From an uncultured Clostridia bacterium (lineage in GTDB: Bacteria; Bacillota; Clostridia; Christensenellales; UBA3700): a stretch of 50,578 bases of DNA. The notes under the pieces were generated by a model. It worked only from the letters and a program-made list of their open reading frames with translations, was not told where the DNA came from and did no database searches. Every line of letters starts with the position of its first letter. The stretch's first letter is position 1. A program made the position numbers and the translations under genes. The stretch lies in NCBI GenBank assembly GCA_944380395.1, contig CALWHM010000012.1, forward strand, positions 1 to 50,578, in the 5' to 3' direction. Below are positions 5,895 to 50,578 of this stretch, piece by piece.

Positions 5895-6653
5895 TCAGTA
5901 CACGTTCCTGCCGCTGAATATCTCTATCATCTCGCGGCGCAGATTGTTCATTATTTCCAGCCTGAGTCTGGGCGGAAGTTCGTATACGTCCGTCTTGAAC
6001 AGGTAGTTTTGCAAGTTTATGTCCTTCACCATCATCTTGGTGTGGAAGATGTTGGCACCGTAAACGTTTATATCCGCGGCGTCGTAACGGGACAGAATGT
6101 TGTCGGAGATATAATCCTGTATGCTGGTCACCTTGTGGTCCATAAACAGCTTTTTGCCGTCCACGTCGCGCGTAAAGCCGCGCACGCGGTAGTCCATCGT
6201 GATGATGTCCGAATCAAAAGAGCTGATAAGGTAGTCCAGCGTGGAAAGCGGCGTTATCTCTCCGCAGGTGGCTACGTCTATGTCCACGCGGAAGGTGGCA
6301 AGTGAGGTTTCCGGGTGGTACTCCGGATAGGTGTGCACGGTGACGTGGCTCTTGTCCAGATGCGCAAGCTGAGTTTCCCCCGCGGGCTTCATAGAGCCTT
6401 CCGCTATCAGAATGGTCACGGAAGCGCCCTGCGGATCGTAATCCTGCTTGGCGATGTTCAGCACTTTCGCGCCTATCATATCCGTCAGAGTGGTGAGGAT
6501 GTTGGTAAGGCGTTCGGAGTTATACTGCTCGTCAATATAGGCGATGTAATCGCGCTGTTCGCGCGCCGTTTTGGCATAGCAAACGTCGTATATGTTAAAG
6601 CTCAAAGCCTTGGTCAGGTTGTTGAACCCGTACAACTTCATCTTATCTTCCAT
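5895..6653 (-). CDS. speD: S-adenosylmethionine decarboxylase proenzyme
   Basis: First gene of the operon, 252 residues, closely resembling the long SpeD of enterobacteria ([13 protein letters not shown] at the N-terminus, [13 protein letters not shown] later). The self-cleavage site [13 protein letters not shown] places the pyruvoyl-forming serine at residue 102. The product supplies decarboxylated AdoMet to SpeE. The start at 6653 has GGAGG five bases upstream and matches the family N-terminus. A second in-frame ATG at 6716, with its own AGGAG, would add 21 residues and would translate straight through the leader hairpin; it may matter for regulation rather than enzyme structure. Confidence 0.93.
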
Positions 6654-6975
6654 TGTTCCTCCGACAAAAAGGGCGATATGCCAAGCATACCGCCCGTAAT
6701 GTATCGTATAGTGCATAATGCTCCTACGGATAACAGAGTCTATATAGCAAATACTTACTTTTACTACTCTTATTGTTACAAGCGGTTTGTGCGCGTTTGC
6801 GCACACGGTTATCAAGTAACCAACTTATACGATCGGTTTCCCGATACAATAAGGCAACGGATGTTGCTGTTCGGCAGTGGACCCGGCTGTCCGTATGGCC
6901 TTGACCCGCAAGGGTGGTCCGTAGTTATTTGCATGGATACTCTGCAAAGGCGCACGCCTTTTCATATCCGATGGT
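6654..6975 (-). ncRNA. Structured 5' leader of the polyamine operon (candidate riboregulator)
   Basis: About 320 nt lie between the predicted transcription start (near 6975) and speD. Read 5' to 3' on the minus strand it is hairpin-rich: AAAGGCG-TG-CGCCTTT, an outer GGATA/TATCC pair, GCAAC-atcc-GTTGC, ATCGG-GAAA-CCGAT with a GNRA loop, GGTTA-cttga-TAACC, TGTGCG-caaa-CGCGCA, and finally the terminator-like hairpin. It matches no riboswitch consensus I recall (SAM, TPP, cobalamin, c-di-GMP, T-box all looked for). Ligand or factor unknown; a polyamine or AdoMet would be the natural guess. Confidence 0.6.
6665..6695 (-). terminator. Terminator-like attenuator hairpin in the speD leader
   Basis: On the minus strand an 11-bp stem (GGGCGGTATGC / GCATATCGCCC, one G-U pair, loop TTG) is followed at once by TTTTTGT and then by the speD ribosome site GGAGG. 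Having an intrinsic terminator between promoter and first gene is a hallmark of transcription attenuation. If it forms, the six-gene operon is not transcribed. Confidence 0.75.
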
Positions 6976-11838: not shown

Positions 11839-13349
11839 CGCTTCGCTTAGGCGCCGAATGAAAGTGTTTTGCGATAAAACTATTTTTCGGGCGCAATGTT
11901 ACTTCGCAAAACACTTTGCGCCTACGCTTTTAGGGGAAAACCCAACACGCTCCGCTGTGGTTTTCCCCTCGTTTTGCGGCAAGTGGTAAAATGTTGCGCC
12001 TAAGCGTTTGCCGCAAAACTTCACCCCTTTCCGTCCTAACGGAAAAATCCGCACAGCGAATTTTATAGGTAACGCTTGGCAAAATGCGATTTTGCCGCGC
12101 TTTATTTTATTATTCCCAAACATTTGCAAAGAGTTTTGCTTTGGCGTTAAGCCATAGTTACTTCAAAGAATAATTAGGGCGTAGTGGCTCGCCAACTCCG
12201 GTTCTCAAGTCTTTTAAGACTTAACGCCCGCACTTTTGCCGTGCTTATTATGTTCAATACGGTTTTGCGGACGCTTCCCATTCACGGCAACGCAAAATTC
12301 CATAATACCGGAATTTCTATAGCACAATACGGAAAACCGGTTGCTCAAAGTCGATAAAAATTCCGATATTTTTGAATTTTTCGTTAGTGGCGGCAAATAA
12401 CGCAAAAATGCAATATAGGCGTCGAAAAGGCGATAAAAAACAAAAAGGGGTGGTTTCCCCCCTTCCCCCCACACCCCCTATCCCCCGGGAATTAAGAATA
12501 AAGAATAAAGAGAGGGATATATATAGAGAAAACCCACGCTTTCTTGCAACTAAGTTTTAGATGATAGCCGGGAGTAAAGCAACGATAAAGGTTTTGCGAC
12601 TTTACATCTTCGCAAGGAGCGTGGGACGCTCCACCCCTTAACCGCATTGAAGTAACGAAAATGGTTTTGCGACTCTTCATCTTCGCAATGTTTTTAGTAG
12701 TGCTCAAGAAATAGGCATGTCAAGTGGTACTTGACAAGGGAGCGGGAGCGCGTGGCGCTCCACCCATTAACCGCCTTGCAGTAACAATTGCAAAAAGTCA
12801 AAGCAAAACTCTTTGCAAAGGCTTGGAAATAGTAGTAAAAATACAAGTGAAGCAAAACCGCGTTTTTGCGAGCGGCGGTGAGCCACCGCGGGCTGATTAT
12901 TCTTTGAAGTAATTACGGCTTAATGCCAAAGCAACACTCTTTGCAATAGCATAGCTTAGTAATAGTAGAATAAAGCGCGGCAAAATCGCATTTTGCCAAG
13001 CGTTACCTATAAAACTTGCCGTGCAAGTTTTCCGAATGAGTGAGGCTAGCCGAACGAATGAGGCGGAGTAGGTTGAATTTTCGCGCCTAAGTATTATAAG
13101 ACTTAAAGTTTACTCGGCGCGAAAAGAAGGGAGAACCGACCCTCAAGCAGGAATCGTCACAGCAATAGCGGAGAGTAGCCTTTGTTTTATTGTTTGATAT
13201 TGCAAGGCGGTTAATGGGTGGAGCGCCACGCGCTCCTGCGAATGGGTGGGTTCTCCCTTAAAGCGACACCGCAAAATGCCGTGAGTAGTAATACACCGCA
13301 CTATTTTTAGTTTATCTCACGGCATTTTCAACCGGCGGTGAAGCGAAGC
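11839..13349. repeat. Repeat island I: hairpin series on inverted flanks, no genes
   Basis: A 1.5-kb gene-free region. On the plus strand a series of hairpins follows in fixed order: HP1 (AAAGTGTTTTGCG 11861-11873 with CGCAAAACACTTT 11905-11917), HP2 (AGGGGAAAACC 11932-11942 with GGTTTTCCCCT 11959-11969), HP3 (GTTTTGCGGCAA 11971-11982 with TTGCCGCAAAAC 12008-12019), HP4 (GGCAAAAT-gcg-ATTTTGCC 12078-12096). The same series returns in reverse on the right, ending with HP1 arms AAAATGCCGTGAG (13273-13285) and CTCACGGCATTTT (13316-13328). Termini are CGCTTCGCTT (11839) and AAGCGAAGC (13341-13349). The middle carries GGAGCG-type hairpins, one GTCAAG dyad (12719-12735) and a G-rich tract on the minus strand (12457-12486). 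Open frames here are short and lack ribosome sites. Confidence 0.75.
12457..12486 (-). other. G-quadruplex-forming tract
   Basis: On the minus strand G5-ATA-G5-TGT-G6-AA-G6: four runs of at least five G with loops of two to three bases. This fits the strongest class of predicted quadruplex. It lies in the centre of island I. Confidence 0.7.
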
Positions 13350-16339: not shown

Positions 16340-16340
16340 A

Positions 16341-18010
16341 GCGCTTCGCTTAGGCGCCGATTGAAAGTGTCGTGCGATAAAGTTATAATCAAAGCGAATG
16401 ATAACTTCGCACGGCACTTTGCGCCTACGCTTTAAGGGAAAACCCTGCCATTCGCAAGCTCTGCTTGCTTGAGGCTCGGTTTTCCCTTCTTTTCGCGCCG
16501 AGTAAGTGTTAAGTCTTAAAAGACTTAGGCGCGAAAATTCACCCCTTTCCGTCCTAGCGGAAAAATCCGCATGGCGAATTTTAGCGGTAACGCTTGGCAA
16601 AATGCGATTTTGCCGCGCTTTATTTTATTATTCTCATACATTTGCAAAGAGCCTTGTTTTGGCTCTAAGCCGTAGCTACTTCAATGCGGTTAATGGGTGG
16701 AGCGCCACCGCGGGCTGATTACTCTTTGAAGTAGCAAGCGTAGTTTTACCGCTTTCTTCTTCGCAAAGTCTTGGGCTGTCCTCAAAAAAATAGGTATGTA
16801 AGTTATTAACTGACAAGATTATTAAAGCAATTAGCCGTATATATCCATGTCAAGTGGTACTTGAGCAGCGAGCCGCTGCACTCTGAACCGCTTTGAAATA
16901 ACGAAAAAAAAGTTTTACTGCTTTTCTTCTTCGCAATGTCTTTGCTTGTATACAAAAAATAAGCATGTCAAGTGCTACTTGACAAGGAGCGTGGGACGCT
17001 CCATCCATTAACCGGATTGAACTAGCTATTACGGAGAGTCTAACCTTAGTTCTTCGCACCGGTATTGACTTGTCATTAAATAAATAGGCATGTAAGTTAT
17101 TATCTGACAAGATTATTAAAGCAATTAGCCGTATATACCCGTGTCAAGTACCACTTGACAAGATTATTTTTAATTACTCTTAGTTATAAAATTCCGGTAT
17201 TATGGAATTTCGCCCGACAAAATACGGCAAAATTATTGAGATTATGCCAAACCGGCATATTTGATGACTAGATGTTATATATTTGCGCAAAATTTTAAAT
17301 ATTTAAAATTTTATAACTGTTAGTTTTGCAAACAAGTTGATTACAAAGAAGCTCTTAATATAAATAAAGCGAAGTAAAACCACGTTTTTGCCAAGCGGCG
17401 GCGAGCCGCCGCCCCCTGATTACTCTTTGAAGTAACTATGGCTTAAAGCCAAAGCAACACTCTTTGCAAAGGCTTGGGAATACTAAAATATCCGCCACAG
17501 AAAACCGCGTTTTTCGGTGAGCGGCAGCGAGCCGCTGCACCCTGATTATTCTTTGAAGCAACTATGGCTTAATGCCAAAGCAAAACTCTTTGCAATAGCA
17601 TAACTTAGTAATAATAAAATAAAGCGCGGCAAAATCGTATTTTGCCAAGCGGCGGCGAGCCGCCGCCCCCTGATTACTCTTTGAAGTAACTATGGCTTAA
17701 AGCCAAAGCAACACTCTTTGCAAAGGCTTGGAGATAATAAAATATCCGCCACCGAAAACCACGCTTTTCGGTGAGCGCACCTATAAAACTTGCCGTGCAA
17801 GTTTTCCGAATGAGTGAGGCTAGCCGAACGAATGAGGCGGAAAGAGTGAATTTTTGCGGGCAAGGCGAGTGCGAAACCTTGATACTCTCCCGCAAAAAGA
17901 GAGAAAACCGAGGCTCAAGAAAACGATTTTGCGGCGAAACCAGGTTCCGCCGCAATGCGCAATAGTGCGTTTTTACCATTCAAGTCGTTTTCGAATGCCC
18001 GGGTTTTCTT
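16341..18010. repeat. Repeat island II: second hairpin-series island
   Basis: About 1.65 kb without genes, starting just after the nrdG stop. Left series: HP1 AAAGTGTCGTGCG (16364-16376) with CGCACGGCACTTT (16408-16420), including one G-U pair; HP2 AAGGGAAAACC (16434-16444) with GGTTTTCCCTT (16478-16488); HP3 TTTTCGCGCC (16490-16499) with GGCGCGAAAA (16528-16537); HP4 (16596-16614). The middle holds dyad pairs at 16798/16849 and 17092/17143 (both exactly 51 bp apart), constant-loop hairpins at 16865, 17397, 17524 and 17651, and a 24-bp AT palindrome (17287-17310). The right side (about 17590-18010) repeats the series in reverse with yet another HP3 stem (TTTTTGCGGG / CCCGCAAAAA) but lacks a clear terminal HP1. 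Confidence 0.7.
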
Positions 18011-18030
18011 TCAGACAAGCGAAAAACGAA

Positions 18031-18062
18031 AAGGCAGATACGGCTCAAACCGTATCCGCCTT
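18031..18062 (-). terminator. Intrinsic terminator of dgt
   Basis: Minus-strand stem AAGGCGGATACGG / CCGTATCTGCCTT (one mismatch) followed by TTCGTTTTTCG, 20 bases after the dgt stop. Confidence 0.8.
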
Positions 18063-18081
18063 TATCCTTTTTGTTTTTCGC

Positions 18082-19086
18082 TTAACTGTTCCACGTTTTC
18101 GGCACAAACAAATTCTCAAACATTCGTATGGCGTATCTGTCCGTAAAGGACGCGATATAATCGCCGACTACTCGGTCGCGGGGGTAGGAGTCGAGCAGGG
18201 AACGGTAAAAGTCGGGCATATCTTCCGGGTGGTTCATATAGTATTCAAACAGCATTTCCAGCATGCGCGTGGCTTTTTTCTCCTCGCCTTTGGCTTGCGG
18301 GTTGGTGTATACGCTCACGAACATAAAGCTATGCAATTTCTCCGTCATCTCGTCAAACAGCGGTGACTGCTTTATCTCCCCCTTCTCATAGCTGTTTTCC
18401 ACAAGGTCGGCGATAAGGTTGTTTATGCGCACGCCCTTGCTTCCGCCGAGCACTTCCACGCAGTCGCGCGGCAGGTCGCTTTCGGACAAAACGCCCGCGC
18501 ATTCGGCGTCCTCTATGTCGTGGTTGATGTAGGCAAATCTGTCAGCATATATCAAAAGTTTGCCTTCTAGGGTGGCAGGCGTGTCAAAATAGCGGTGGTT
18601 GGCTATGCCGTCGCGCACTTCGTAGGTGAGGTTCAGACCCTTGCCGTCCCCCTCCAAAAGATCGACGACGCGCAAAGAGTGTTGGCTGTGGATAAAGCCG
18701 CCTTTGATAAGTTTGTTCAGCACCGCTTCACCCGCATGTCCGAAGGGCGTGTGCCCGAGGTCGTGCCCCAGGCACATTGCCTCAGTAAGGTCTTCGTTCA
18801 GGCGGAGGGCGCGCGCCATAGTGCGCGCTATCTGCGCCACTTCAAGGGTGTGGGTCAGGCGCGTGCGGTAGTGGTCGCCCTCCGGGGAGAGGAACACCTG
18901 CGTTTTGTGTTTGAGGCGGCGGAACGCCTTGCTGTGAATTATCCTGTCGCGGTCGCGCTGATATTCCGTGCGCAGCGGGCAGGGCGGAATGGGGGTGAGC
19001 CTGCCTTTGGTGTCCTTCACGTGCTGGGCGAACTTGCTCAAATAAGTTTCTTCCACTATCTGTAAATAGGCGTTTTTGTATTCCAT
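18082..19086 (-). CDS. dgt: dGTPase-like HD-domain triphosphohydrolase
   Basis: 334 residues. The HD-domain metal ligands are readable in order: LTHTLEVAQIAR (H), GHDLGHTPFGHAGE (HD plus two further H) and YINHDIEDA (D). The N-terminal RDRDRIIHSKAFRRLKHKTQVF is diagnostic of the deoxyguanosinetriphosphate triphosphohydrolase family. It converts dNTPs to deoxynucleosides and triphosphate, and so can balance the pool made by the nearby NrdD. Length is in the short (type 2/3) class. The -10 box ends six bases before the ATG, so the mRNA appears leaderless. Confidence 0.9.
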   Translation of the reverse strand: MEYKNAYLQIVEETYLSKFAQHVKDTKGRLTPIPPCPLRTEYQRDRDRIIHSKAFRRLKHKTQVFLSPEGDHYRTRLTHTLEVAQIARTMARALRLNEDLTEAMCLGHDLGHTPFGHAGEAVLNKLIKGGFIHSQHSLRVVDLLEGDGKGLNLTYEVRDGIANHRYFDTPATLEGKLLIYADRFAYINHDIEDAECAGVLSESDLPRDCVEVLGGSKGVRINNLIADLVENSYEKGEIKQSPLFDEMTEKLHSFMFVSVYTNPQAKGEEKKATRMLEMLFEYYMNHPEDMPDFYRSLLDSYPRDRVVGDYIASFTDRYAIRMFENLFVPKTWNS

Positions 19087-26980: not shown

Positions 26981-27508
26981 AATATAACCGCCGATTGAAA
27001 ATGCCGCAGGATAAAACCAGCAATAAAACAAGCTAGCCGTTCCTGCGGCATTTTGCGGTTACGCTTCAAGGGAGAACCCACCCATTCGCAGGAGCGCGTG
27101 GCGCTCCACCCATTAACCGCCTTGCAATATCAAACAATAAAACAAAGGCTACTCTCCGCTATTGCTGTGACGATTCCTGCTTGAGGGTCGGTTCTCCCTT
27201 CTTTTCGCGCCGAGTAAGCGTTAAGTCTTATAATACTTAGGCGCGAAAATTCAACCTACTCCGCCTCATTCGTTCGGCTAGCATCACTCATTCGGAAAAC
27301 TTGCACGGCAAGTTTTATAGGTGCGCTCACCGAAAAGCGCGGTTTTCGGTGGCGGGTATTTTATTATGCCAAGCCATTGCAAGGAATTTTGCTTTGGCTT
27401 CCCGCCACGCTCCTTCAAAGAGTAATCAGCCCGCGGTGGCTCACCGCCGCTTGGCAAAAGTGCGATTTTGCCGCGCTTGATTTACAATATGAAAGCCGCC
27501 GTTCGCTG

Positions 27509-27560
27509 TATTAGGGCACTTCTACGCAGTGCTGTTGGTTGTAGCGTTTAACAAGGTGAA
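27509..27560 (+). repeat. 51-base dispersed repeat, copy 2
   Basis: Near-identical to 11786-11836. Here it lies within island III, whereas copy 1 lies just outside island I. Confidence 0.75.
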
Positions 27561-28109
27561 ATTTTAAAGGTATACTCCTACTGTTATGTAGCCGGCATTT
27601 GCAAAACCGATAGTTGTAAAATTTTAAATTTTTAAAAATTCCCGTTGAAATCAACTCGTTTTTAAAAGTGATGGTTATAAAATTTTAAATATTTAAAATT
27701 TCAACCAAAAACCTGCTGAACACTATTCGAAGAGTAAGACTATTCGGTTGAAAAATATGTGCGCTGCACATATTCTGCGCCCGTGCCGAGCAAGCGTTAA
27801 GTCTTAAAAGACTTAGCGCGAAAATTCAACCTTTCTATTAGGCGCCAAAAGAAAGCATCCGCAAAACCGGAAGCCAATAAAAGCAAGTGTCTACAAAACC
27901 TATAACGCATAATTCCGGTATTCTGGAATTTCGCACTATCGGCAGACAGAAAAAATTAGCGTAAAAGCAAGGATATTTGGCAAAATGCAGTCACTCACGT
28001 GCAAAATCGCGTTGTTGGAAATTCCATAATACCGGAATTTTACGCCGCTGAGCAGGGAAAGTGCCCGCAAAACCGGACAGACAAATGGGTGCAAACTAAA
28101 CGCAAACCA

Positions 28110-28168
28110 TACACCTGTTAGGTGTACGCCGCGCTACTTCATACACCTGCTATACACCTATCAGGTGT
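28110..28168. repeat. Pair of ACACCT dyads
   Basis: ACACCTGTTAGGTGT and ACACCTATCAGGTGT, each followed by ACGSCGCG-like sequence, plus two extra ACACCT half-sites between them. This looks like paired protein-binding sites or two copies of a small hairpin module within island III. Confidence 0.5.
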
Positions 28169-28518
28169 ACGGCGCATTAACTATTATGCAATAAAGCGCG
28201 GCAAAATCGCATTTTGCCAAGCGTAACCTATAAAATTCGCCGTGCGGATTTTTCCGCTAGGACGGAAAGGGGTGAAGTTTTGCGGCAAACGCTTAGGCTC
28301 AACATTTTACCACTTGCCGCAAAACGAGGGGAAAACCATAGCGGAGCGTGTTGGGTTTTCCCCTTAAAGCGACACCGCAAAATGCCGCAGGAACGGCTAG
28401 CTTGTCTTATTACAAGTTTATCCTGCGGCATTTTCAACCGGCGGTGAAGCGCAGCGCTCAACCGGCGGTGAAGCGAAGCGCTTATATAAAGCTTTTAGTG
28501 ATTTTTGAAAATTGGGTC

Positions 28519-38760: not shown

Positions 38761-39440
38761 GCCAAGCGGTACTTAACATGCTTATATTCGGTTGTAAAGA
38801 AAAACAAGCTTGTCAGTTAATAACTTACAAGGATATTTATTGCTTGCCCCTTTAATAGTCGTGTCAAGTGGTACTTGACACGGGTGTATACTGCTTGCTG
38901 CTTTATTAGTCTTGTCAAGTAGTACTTGACACGAATGTATATTGTTTACCCCTTTAATGGTCGTGTCAAGCAGTACTTGACATGGGTATATACTGCTTAC
39001 TGCTTTAATAGCCTTGTCAAGCAGTACTTGACACGAGTATATATTGCTTGCTGCTTTAATAGTCTTGTCAAGCAGTACTTGACATAAGTGTATATTGTTT
39101 ACTGCTTTAACAGTCTTGTCAAGCAGTACCTGACACGGGTGTATATTGCTTGCTGCTTTAACAGCCTTGTCAAGTGGTACTTGACACGAGTGTATATTGC
39201 TTGCTGCTTTAACAGCCTTGTCAAGTGGTACTTGACACGAGTATATACTGCTTACCCCCTTAATAGTCTTGTCAAGTGGTACTTGACACGGGTATATACT
39301 GCTTACCCCTTTAATAGTCTTGTCAAGCAGTACTTGACACGAGTATATATTGCTTACCCCTTTAATAGTCTTGTCAAGTGGTACTTGACACGAGTATATA
39401 TTGCTTGCTGCTTTAACAGGCTTGCCAGTTAATAACTTAC
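38761..39440. repeat. Tandem array of 17-bp dyads at exact 51-bp spacing
   Basis: Fourteen dyads begin at 38761, 38812, 38863 and so on to 39424, each step exactly 51 bp. Inner units are GTCAAGTGGTACTTGAC, GTCAAGCAGTACTTGAC or GTCAAGTAGTACTTGAC: six-base arms constant, middle variable. Units 2 and 14 are a different type, GTCAGTTAATAACTTAC and a one-base variant, which cap the array. The 34-base spacers are near-identical to one another, so it is a tandem repeat and not CRISPR. Because 51 is divisible by three, the minus strand stays open for over 200 codons, an artefact. Confidence 0.9.
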
Positions 39441-50255: not shown

Positions 50256-50261
50256 ATATCA

Positions 50262-50578
50262 GGCGCCGAATGAAAGTGCCGTACGATAAAACTATAATCA
50301 AGGCGAAAAACAACTTCGTACGGCACTTTGCGCCTACGCTTTAAGGGAAAACCCGGGCATTCGAAAACGACTTAAACGGTAAGAACGCACCATTGCGCAT
50401 TGCGGCTGAACTTGGTTCCGCCGCAAAATCGTTTTCTTGAGCCTCGGTTTTCCCTTCTTTTCGCGCCGAGTAAGCTTTAAGTCTTATAATACTTAAGCGC
50501 GAAAATTCAACCCTTTCCGCCTCATTCGTTCGGCTAGCCTCACTCATTCGGAAAACTTGCACATCAAGTTTTATAGGT
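50262..50578. repeat. Start of a fourth repeat island (cut by window end)
   Basis: HP1 with arms AAAGTGCCGTACG and CGTACGGCACTTT, then HP2 AAGGGAAAACC / GGTTTTCCCTT whose loop holds a nested GAAAACGA / TCGTTTTC stem, then HP3 TTTTCGCGCC / GGCGCGAAAA. It begins six bases after the gerC stop. Confidence 0.72.

What the first reader, a model, noticed from the sequence alone, without database searches (positions are those of the whole stretch)
11839..13349. Repeat islands built of hairpins whose stems vary between copies but stay paired
The same ordered series of stem-loops (HP1-HP4) occurs at 11.8, 13.3, 16.4, 17.8, 27.0, 28.4 and 50.3 kb. HP1 arms read AAAGTGTTTTGCG, AAAGTGTCGTGCG, AAAGTGCCGTACG, AAAATGCCGCAGG and AAAATGCCGTGAG, and in each copy the second arm is changed to match, with one G-U intermediate (16364/16408). 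HP3 has three unrelated stems, each self-paired. Covariation with wobble steps normally marks selection on RNA (or single-strand DNA) structure, so this may be a large structured RNA family or an element mobilised through a folded intermediate. It could also arise from gene conversion between arms.
Basis: partly seen in the sequence, partly recalled or inferred. Interest (0 to 1): 0.85.

Follow-up and report, generated by a model that had tools for sequence, protein, structure and literature searches.

The report
Old hairpin islands, renewed in place
The window holds non-coding islands built of DNA hairpins whose stems do change in matched pairs, but between two related species whole hairpins have been swapped at the same places, which fits exchange between islands better than a hidden structured RNA.

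Summary
HP1 is a 77-position hairpin (7-bp foot, one-sided CGNNTG bulge, 13-bp stem). It is present at six of the seven named places and missing at 17.8 kb. Its stem covaries: 96.6% of 860 cells pair and 11 of 20 pairs change on both sides; 29 chance hits of the same pattern in unrelated genomes do not pair. HP1 was found only in the window's genus (Candidatus Alloclostridium relatives).

The RNA reading is not favoured. At 13 orthologous island borders shared with a sister species HP1 is the same at 1 and different at 12; in 10 of 11 measurable cases the orthologous hairpin ranks only 11th-22nd of 24. Single-arm mismatch events are A.C 10-11 and G.T 5. Nine of 65 HP1s carry 11 stubs of earlier HP1s, 9 of them different from the neighbour.

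Best reading: a genus-specific mosaic of palindromic non-coding DNA, in kind like BIME/MITE repeats, old at its loci and overwritten hairpin by hairpin through exchange between islands. No helper enzyme was found; the mechanism and any function are inferred. New variant of a known kind.

The parts
11839..13349 (.). Island A, between the YhhN gene and nrdD; HP1 at both ends
   Evidence: absent from the same gap in G001, G003, G005
11848..11924 (+). HP1, stem AAAGTGTTTTGCG
   Evidence: covariance model E 1.6e-19
11932..11969 (+). HP2, AGGGGAAAACC stem
   Evidence: perfect inverted repeat
11971..12019 (+). HP3, GTTTTGCGGCAA stem
   Evidence: perfect inverted repeat
12020..12076 (+). HP4 region (TTCACC...ATAGGT)
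   Evidence: repeated in other half-islands
13078..13125 (-). HP3 of the right half, TTTTCGCGCC stem
13127..13259 (-). HP2 of the right half (AAGGGAGAACC...GGTTCTCCCTT)
   Evidence: read
13266..13341 (-). HP1 of the right half, stem AAAATGCCGTGAG
   Evidence: E 1.4e-16
16340..18012 (.). Island B, between nrdG and the HD-domain gene; HP1 at the left end only
16351..16427 (+). HP1, stem AAAGTGTCGTGCG with one T.G pair
   Evidence: E 5.4e-20
16434..16488 (+). HP2 of island B
16490..16537 (+). HP3 of island B, TTTTCGCGCC stem
17376..17770 (.). 126-bp tandem repeat, about 3 copies, inside island B
17851..17898 (-). HP3 of the right half of island B, TTTTTGCGGG stem
26984..28482 (.). Island C, between the PhoU-like gene and ppx; HP1 at both ends
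26985..27061 (+). HP1, stem AAAATGCCGCAGG
   Evidence: E 3.9e-17
27202..27249 (+). HP3 of island C, left half
28277..28325 (-). HP3 of island C, right half
28327..28364 (-). HP2 of island C, right half
28372..28447 (-). HP1 of the right half, stem AAAATGCCGCAGG
   Evidence: E 2.6e-15
28434..28482 (-). 24-bp doubled foot of HP1 (stub)
50258..50578 (.). Island D after the GerAC gene, cut by the window end
50260..50336 (+). HP1, stem AAAGTGCCGTACG
   Evidence: E 2.0e-19

Best explanation
The islands are mosaics of non-coding palindromic DNA, an interspersed repeat family of one uncultured clostridial genus. SHOWN: half-islands follow the order HP1-HP2-HP3-HP4, and some islands are two such halves facing each other with other repeats between. 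SHOWN: the same intergenic places carry islands in two species, while the terminal hairpin there is usually a different variant and copies within a genome are more alike than orthologues. INFERRED: ready-made hairpins are copied from island to island by ectopic gene conversion or recombination, both arms at once, which accounts for much of the apparent covariation. INFERRED: pairing persists because damaged hairpins are overwritten by intact ones, or because the DNA hairpin is what is recognised or copied. Any use to the host is unknown; most likely none.
For: 13 orthologous borders G000/G002, HP1 same at 1, different at 12. Orthologous HP1 ranks 1st of 24 G002 units once and 11th-22nd in the other 10 of 11 measurable cases, best paralogue in G000 0.80-0.96 identical. 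Island gained before the G000/G002 split at nrdD, absent in G001, G003, G005. Stubs of earlier HP1s at 9 of 65 HP1s, 9 of 11 stubs different from the neighbour. Stem covariation of HP1, with both A.C and G.T single mismatches. Close copies differ one-sidedly 22:1 and 43:10, distant ones two-sidedly. Gene order differs at islands B and C. Found only in the genus.
Against: Conversion tracts were not mapped; the donor of no hairpin was identified. At HP2-HP4 the orthologue ranks 1st in 1 and 3rd in 2 of 11 cases, so turnover is uneven. In 5 of 13 borders one species has up to about 330 extra bases between the alignable flank and HP1, so the exact border is not shared there. Independent insertion at the same gaps in both species is not formally excluded. 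All genomes are drafts, and misassembly at repeats could create the changed gene order.
Confidence: 0.6

Rival explanations
1. HP1-HP4 are parts of a structured RNA family kept by selection on base pairing in the transcript.
For: Covariation above shuffles and above slid partners; 8 of 12 variable pairs at p<0.05 against a tree-aware null; RNA fold energies far below shuffles; mismatches removed over time.
Against: A.C events outnumber G.T on the unit strand (10-11 to 5; an RNA on the other strand would reverse this and is not excluded). DNA folds are at least as extreme. No Rfam match in the islands. Orthologous positions usually do not keep the same hairpin; islands differ in make-up.
Confidence: 0.12
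2. The hairpins are the ends of a non-autonomous element moved by an enzyme that recognises single-stranded DNA hairpins, like IS200/IS605, RAYT or integron systems.
For: Bulged hairpin with a conserved unpaired CG (8 of 8 pattern-independent copies) and TG (5 of 8); stubs joining at one base in 10 of 11; island gains between species.
Against: Y1 transposases in only 2 of 7 genus genomes and not in G000, and those seen have other end hairpins; reverse transcriptase only in G005 and G006; no integron integrase over cut-off in 7 genomes. No target-site duplication noticed by eye.
Confidence: 0.15
3. Pairing is kept neutrally by template switching between the two arms of each hairpin during replication, without selection or exchange between islands.
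For: Known to correct imperfect palindromes (PMC8794818, passages; PMC7202029, listing and abstract start only). Parsimony also reconstructs many two-sided changes (16 or 29 inner-stem events by tree).
Against: No inverted loops among 65 HP1 and 79 HP3 loops. Does not explain replacement of stem and loop together at orthologous places.
Confidence: 0.1
4. Assembly artefact: collapsed repeats in draft bins make copies within a genome look alike.
For: All genomes are drafts of 20-130 contigs in this genus; some islands lie at contig ends (C31, C40).
Against: Islands occur in separately assembled genomes next to their own orthologous genes; copies differ from each other by many substitutions.
Confidence: 0.03

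Closest known systems
REP / REPIN / BIME repeats (PMC3733652, passages; PMC3116915, listing only)
   Same: Intergenic palindromic units in alternating orientation, grouped in mosaics, stems varying between families.
   Different: HP1 is 77 positions long with a bulged two-part stem; no GTAG or CGTC tag at its foot; no RAYT-type enzyme in G000; variants differ at orthologous loci.
Double-hairpin and other repetitive hairpin elements of mitochondria (PMC10085805 and PMC2800124, passages)
   Same: Intergenic hairpin elements without coding capacity, called potentially mobile, mechanism unknown.
   Different: Here bacterial, embedded in islands of 0.7-1.7 kb, with several hairpin types in fixed order; DHEs were described as nearly identical across two fission yeasts, HP1s mostly differ.
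Inverted repeats in Borrelia plasmid intergenic regions (PMC2674063, passages)
   Same: Repeats downstream of genes with compensated stem changes, read by the authors as conserved RNA structure and compared with MITEs.
   Different: Small sets (9-11 sequences) on plasmids; exchange between loci was not seen discussed in the passages shown.
MITEs
   Same: Non-coding, inverted symmetry at the ends of some islands.
   Different: No autonomous parent, no target-site duplication noticed; composite interior.
Integron attC sites (recalled)
   Same: Folded site with variable stem and unpaired landmarks.
   Different: No integron integrase over cut-off.

Membership tests
REP/REPIN/BIME | Palindromic intergenic repeats combined in mosaics in both orientations | tested here: met
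REP/REPIN/BIME | GTAG or CGTC tag at one end of the hairpin | tested here: not met
   foot of HP1 is TARSCGC/GCGSYTA in nearly all of 68 members, no such tag
REP/REPIN/BIME | RAYT (Y1-type) transposase in the genome | tested here: not met
   PF01797 in 2 of 7 genus genomes (G002, G003), none in G000, which is 88% complete
MITE | Terminal inverted repeats | tested here: inconclusive
   five facing HP1 pairs; the other HP1s in hand have no facing partner
MITE | Target-site duplication and an autonomous relative | tested here: inconclusive
   ends read by eye only, none noticed; no relative found by the families searched
Structured RNA family | Match to a described family | tested here: not met
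   Rfam gathering search of the window: one match, outside the islands
Structured RNA family | Covariation beyond phylogeny | tested here: inconclusive
   8 of 12 pairs p<0.05, 3 after correction for 12 tests (own script)
Structured RNA family | Transcription | not testable with these tools
   no RNA-seq
Integron attC | Integron integrase in the genome | tested here: not met
   TIGR02249: 0 of 7 over cut-off; also 0 of 14 control genomes over it, so no positive control
Mitochondrial double-hairpin element | Two hairpins as the mobile unit | not tested
   unit of exchange not mapped

The most novel reading that the evidence does not exclude
A hairpin that replaces hairpins: an unknown activity cuts or joins at the foot of the inner stem (CGNNTG|A), recognising the fold and bulge rather than the stem letters, so that new HP1 units are spliced in behind the 5' stub of the old one, and competing stem types sweep through fixed genomic slots species by species.
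Probability: 0.15. Interest if true: 0.78.

Novelty: new variant of a known kind. Interest (0 to 1): 0.5.

Why it matters
Compensated stem changes are usually read as evidence for a functional RNA. Here dozens of copies in several species, with orthologous positions, show such changes where much of the signal seems to come from exchange of ready-made hairpins between loci. That makes the set a natural test case for covariation statistics and for concerted evolution of palindromes in bacteria. If the fixed CGNNTGA junction reflects an enzyme, it would be a new DNA activity that recognises shape.

Tried and rejected
Rfam at gathering threshold: only SpF59_sRNA at 6871-6920, outside the islands. 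Viral contigs: no match to the HP1 pattern. Density of perfect inverted repeats in samples of up to 20 kb: 6.3 per 10 kb in the window and 7.5 in one G003 sample, but also 4.5 in G010 and G011, which lack HP1, so not diagnostic; L171 and L181 have no readable base there and count as zero for that reason. IS200-like loci of G002 and G003: end hairpins unlike HP1. SbcCD: I first thought that cleavage of palindromes by SbcCD drives the exchange. No SbcD match reaches the curated cut-off in 25 of 25 family genomes, against 4 of 16 from other families of the order; no SbcC match reaches its cut-off in any of the 41, though only 1 of 14 control genomes does. So SbcCD is an unlikely cause; its lack may make hairpins tolerable, but family members without HP1 lack it too. 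Template switching: no loop inversion. One model hit in another family, G244, is a 46-nt simple hairpin and was not counted as a member. Two of the five measures do not favour the structure strongly: pairs with two-sided change 11 against 9.4 in shuffles, and further pair types 18 against 19.6. Literature: Alloclostridium with repeat, 0 papers; REP with gene conversion and concerted evolution, 0; two broader searches listed nothing on these islands.

Rows dropped before counts: pattern matches within 25 bases of a locus end, so 29 of 30 unrelated stretches form the control; 68 members were reduced to 65 distinct; 2 of 13 orthologous pairs because the G002 unit was cut. Members and chance hits were told apart by the record titles. 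An earlier count said 9 of 12 pairs at p<0.05; one search shows 8 of 12, used here. My note also says SbcD 25/25, which agrees.

Full report
WHAT WAS CHECKED. The window is C12:1-50578 of a 1.78-Mb draft genome of 66 contigs, 88% complete. Genus relatives: G002 appears to be Candidatus Alloclostridium intestinigallinarum (CAJFJA records), G003 an 'uncultured Christensenellaceae' bin (CALWHE), G001 Candidatus Caccalectryoclostridium excrementigallinarum (DVNJ). NCBI lists the first as Clostridia incertae sedis and the last in Christensenellales.

THE HAIRPIN. HP1 has a 7-bp foot (mostly TARSCGC/GCGSYTA), a one-sided six-base bulge CGNNTG, a 13-bp stem beginning AAA[AG]TG and a loop of about 30 bases. 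In a 43-row alignment 96.6% of 860 cells pair, 11 of 20 pairs change on both sides, and the covariation score is 0.418 against a mean of 0.173 in shuffles and at most 0.147 with slid partners. Because the search pattern fixes several pairs, I counted the seven arm positions it leaves free: 446 of 476 cells of 68 members are Watson-Crick, with 4 G.T, 23 A.C and 3 other cells; in 29 chance hits in unrelated genomes it is 52 of 203. Eight further copies that the pattern missed but the covariance model found keep CG at the start of the bulge in 8 of 8 and TG at its end in 5 of 8; one (L201) has a C-G pair where the pattern required G-C.

ORDER AND ARCHITECTURE. HP2, HP3 and HP4 follow HP1. Within a compact island (L006:1025-1815) the inner parts of the two halves pair with each other, giving one nested fold with z -15.0 as RNA and -18.8 as DNA. 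Of 29 HP1s in the window and L001-L020, ten form five facing pairs 0.7-1.4 kb apart; the others have no facing partner within 2.5 kb in the sequence held. No ORF of 100 codons or more lies wholly inside islands A and C; one of 101 aa (17674-17979, minus) lies in island B and was not searched.

DISTRIBUTION. By pattern: 31 in G000, 26 in G002, 12 in G003, 2 in G001, none in G004, G005 and G006; reversed-pattern control none. By covariance model: 5 of 47 family genomes, all in this genus, G005 by one match at E 9e-5; 5 of 297 sampled order genomes at 1e-4, four of the genus and one short hairpin of another kind. In the collection of 84,980 species the pattern lies in 67 stretches; by title 37 belong to the three named relatives and 30 are scattered (records of the window's own genome may be left out there). 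Viral contigs: none.

OLD LOCI, YOUNG HAIRPINS. Between the YhhN gene and nrdD lie about 1.8 kb in the window but only about 220, 265 and 155 bp in G005, G003 and G001. In G002 an HP1 stands next to nrdD at the same distance as in the window. Matching the flanks outside HP1 between G000 and G002 gave 13 orthologous borders. In 8 the flank alignment runs to within 60 bases of HP1 in both genomes; in 5 one genome has between about 120 and 330 more bases there. The hairpin is the same at one (L011/L051) and different, loop included, at twelve. In 11 measurable cases the orthologous HP1 ranks first of 24 G002 units once and 11th to 22nd ten times; the best paralogue in G000 is 0.80-0.96 identical. 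For HP2-HP4 the orthologue ranks first once, third twice and lower in eight. Some borders are also shared with G003 and G001 islands.

STUBS. Nine of 65 HP1s have one or two 5' feet of other HP1s just outside, each ending CGNNTGA (one CGNNTAA). Nine of eleven stubs differ from the adjacent HP1, so simple slippage does not explain them; in ten of eleven the stub is followed by GCGC. They read as remains of earlier occupants. Whether the junction is a cut site or the edge of shared sequence cannot be said.

WHY NOT RNA. On trees of 65 distinct HP1s, with the substitutions of each column replaced at random on the branches (own script, 60 replicates, 24,000 pooled values), 8 of 12 variable pairs reach p<0.05 with either tree and 3 pass correction for 12 tests. 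The strongest of 1540 column pairs is structural, but only 5 of the strongest 20 are; linked columns that change as blocks supply others. Single-mismatch events in the inner stem are A.C 10 or 11 and G.T 5 on the unit strand; an RNA on that strand should show the reverse, one on the other strand is not excluded, and the numbers are small. The same reconstruction has 16 or 29 two-sided changes, which do not tell exchange from compensation. Loops are not inverted. Close copies differ one-sidedly (22 to 1 at loop distance 0-2, 43 to 10 at 3-5), distant ones two-sidedly: mismatches arise singly and are later removed, as expected if intact hairpins overwrite damaged ones, or if the fold is selected.

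REARRANGEMENT. nrdG and ppx are neighbours in G001 (no island between) and in G002 (island between). In the window nrdG is followed by island B and an HD-domain gene, and ppx is preceded by island C and the PhoU-like gene. A rearrangement with both breakpoints in islands is the simplest reading; misassembly is not excluded.

HELPERS. Y1 transposase, reverse transcriptase, integron integrase and SbcCD were searched by family and do not explain the islands. An unknown recombinase would be missed, and G000 is incomplete.

COMPARISON. In kind the islands belong with bacterial interspersed mosaic palindromes, but they fail the tag and RAYT tests of REP/REPIN and the integrase test of attC. Mitochondrial hairpin elements and Borrelia inverted repeats pose related puzzles (passages). 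Template switching can maintain hairpins (PMC8794818, passages), but its loop-inversion footprint is not seen here. The long bulged HP1, the island architecture and replacement at shared loci make this a new variant of a known kind.

Noticed in passing
window 6871-6920 (minus): Rfam match SpF59_sRNA (66.8 bits, cut-off 37.2) just 5' of an S-adenosylmethionine decarboxylase gene (5895-6815, minus); it may be a leader element of that gene.
   Followed up: partly
window 38834-39424: 51-bp tandem repeat, 11.6 copies, containing TGTCAAGTAGTACTTGACA-like palindromes, related to modules inside island B.
   Followed up: no
window 18017-18083; G003 loci printed: A terminator-like hairpin AAGCGAAA...TTTCGCTT lies beside the right end of island B; similar hairpins stand just outside HP1 in 7 of 9 G003 copies printed.
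   Followed up: no
G003 islands, e.g. L037, L039, L036: Runs of hairpins with unrelated stems separated by the spacer ATTTCAC inside G003 islands.
   Followed up: no
family f1 genomes G000-G024: No SbcD match over the curated cut-off in 25 of 25 genomes of the family, against 4 of 16 from other families of the order.
   Followed up: partly
L003:2600-3050: Island in G000 with many TGTCCACTTTTGTGGACA palindromes in a row, separated by short variable spacers.
   Followed up: no
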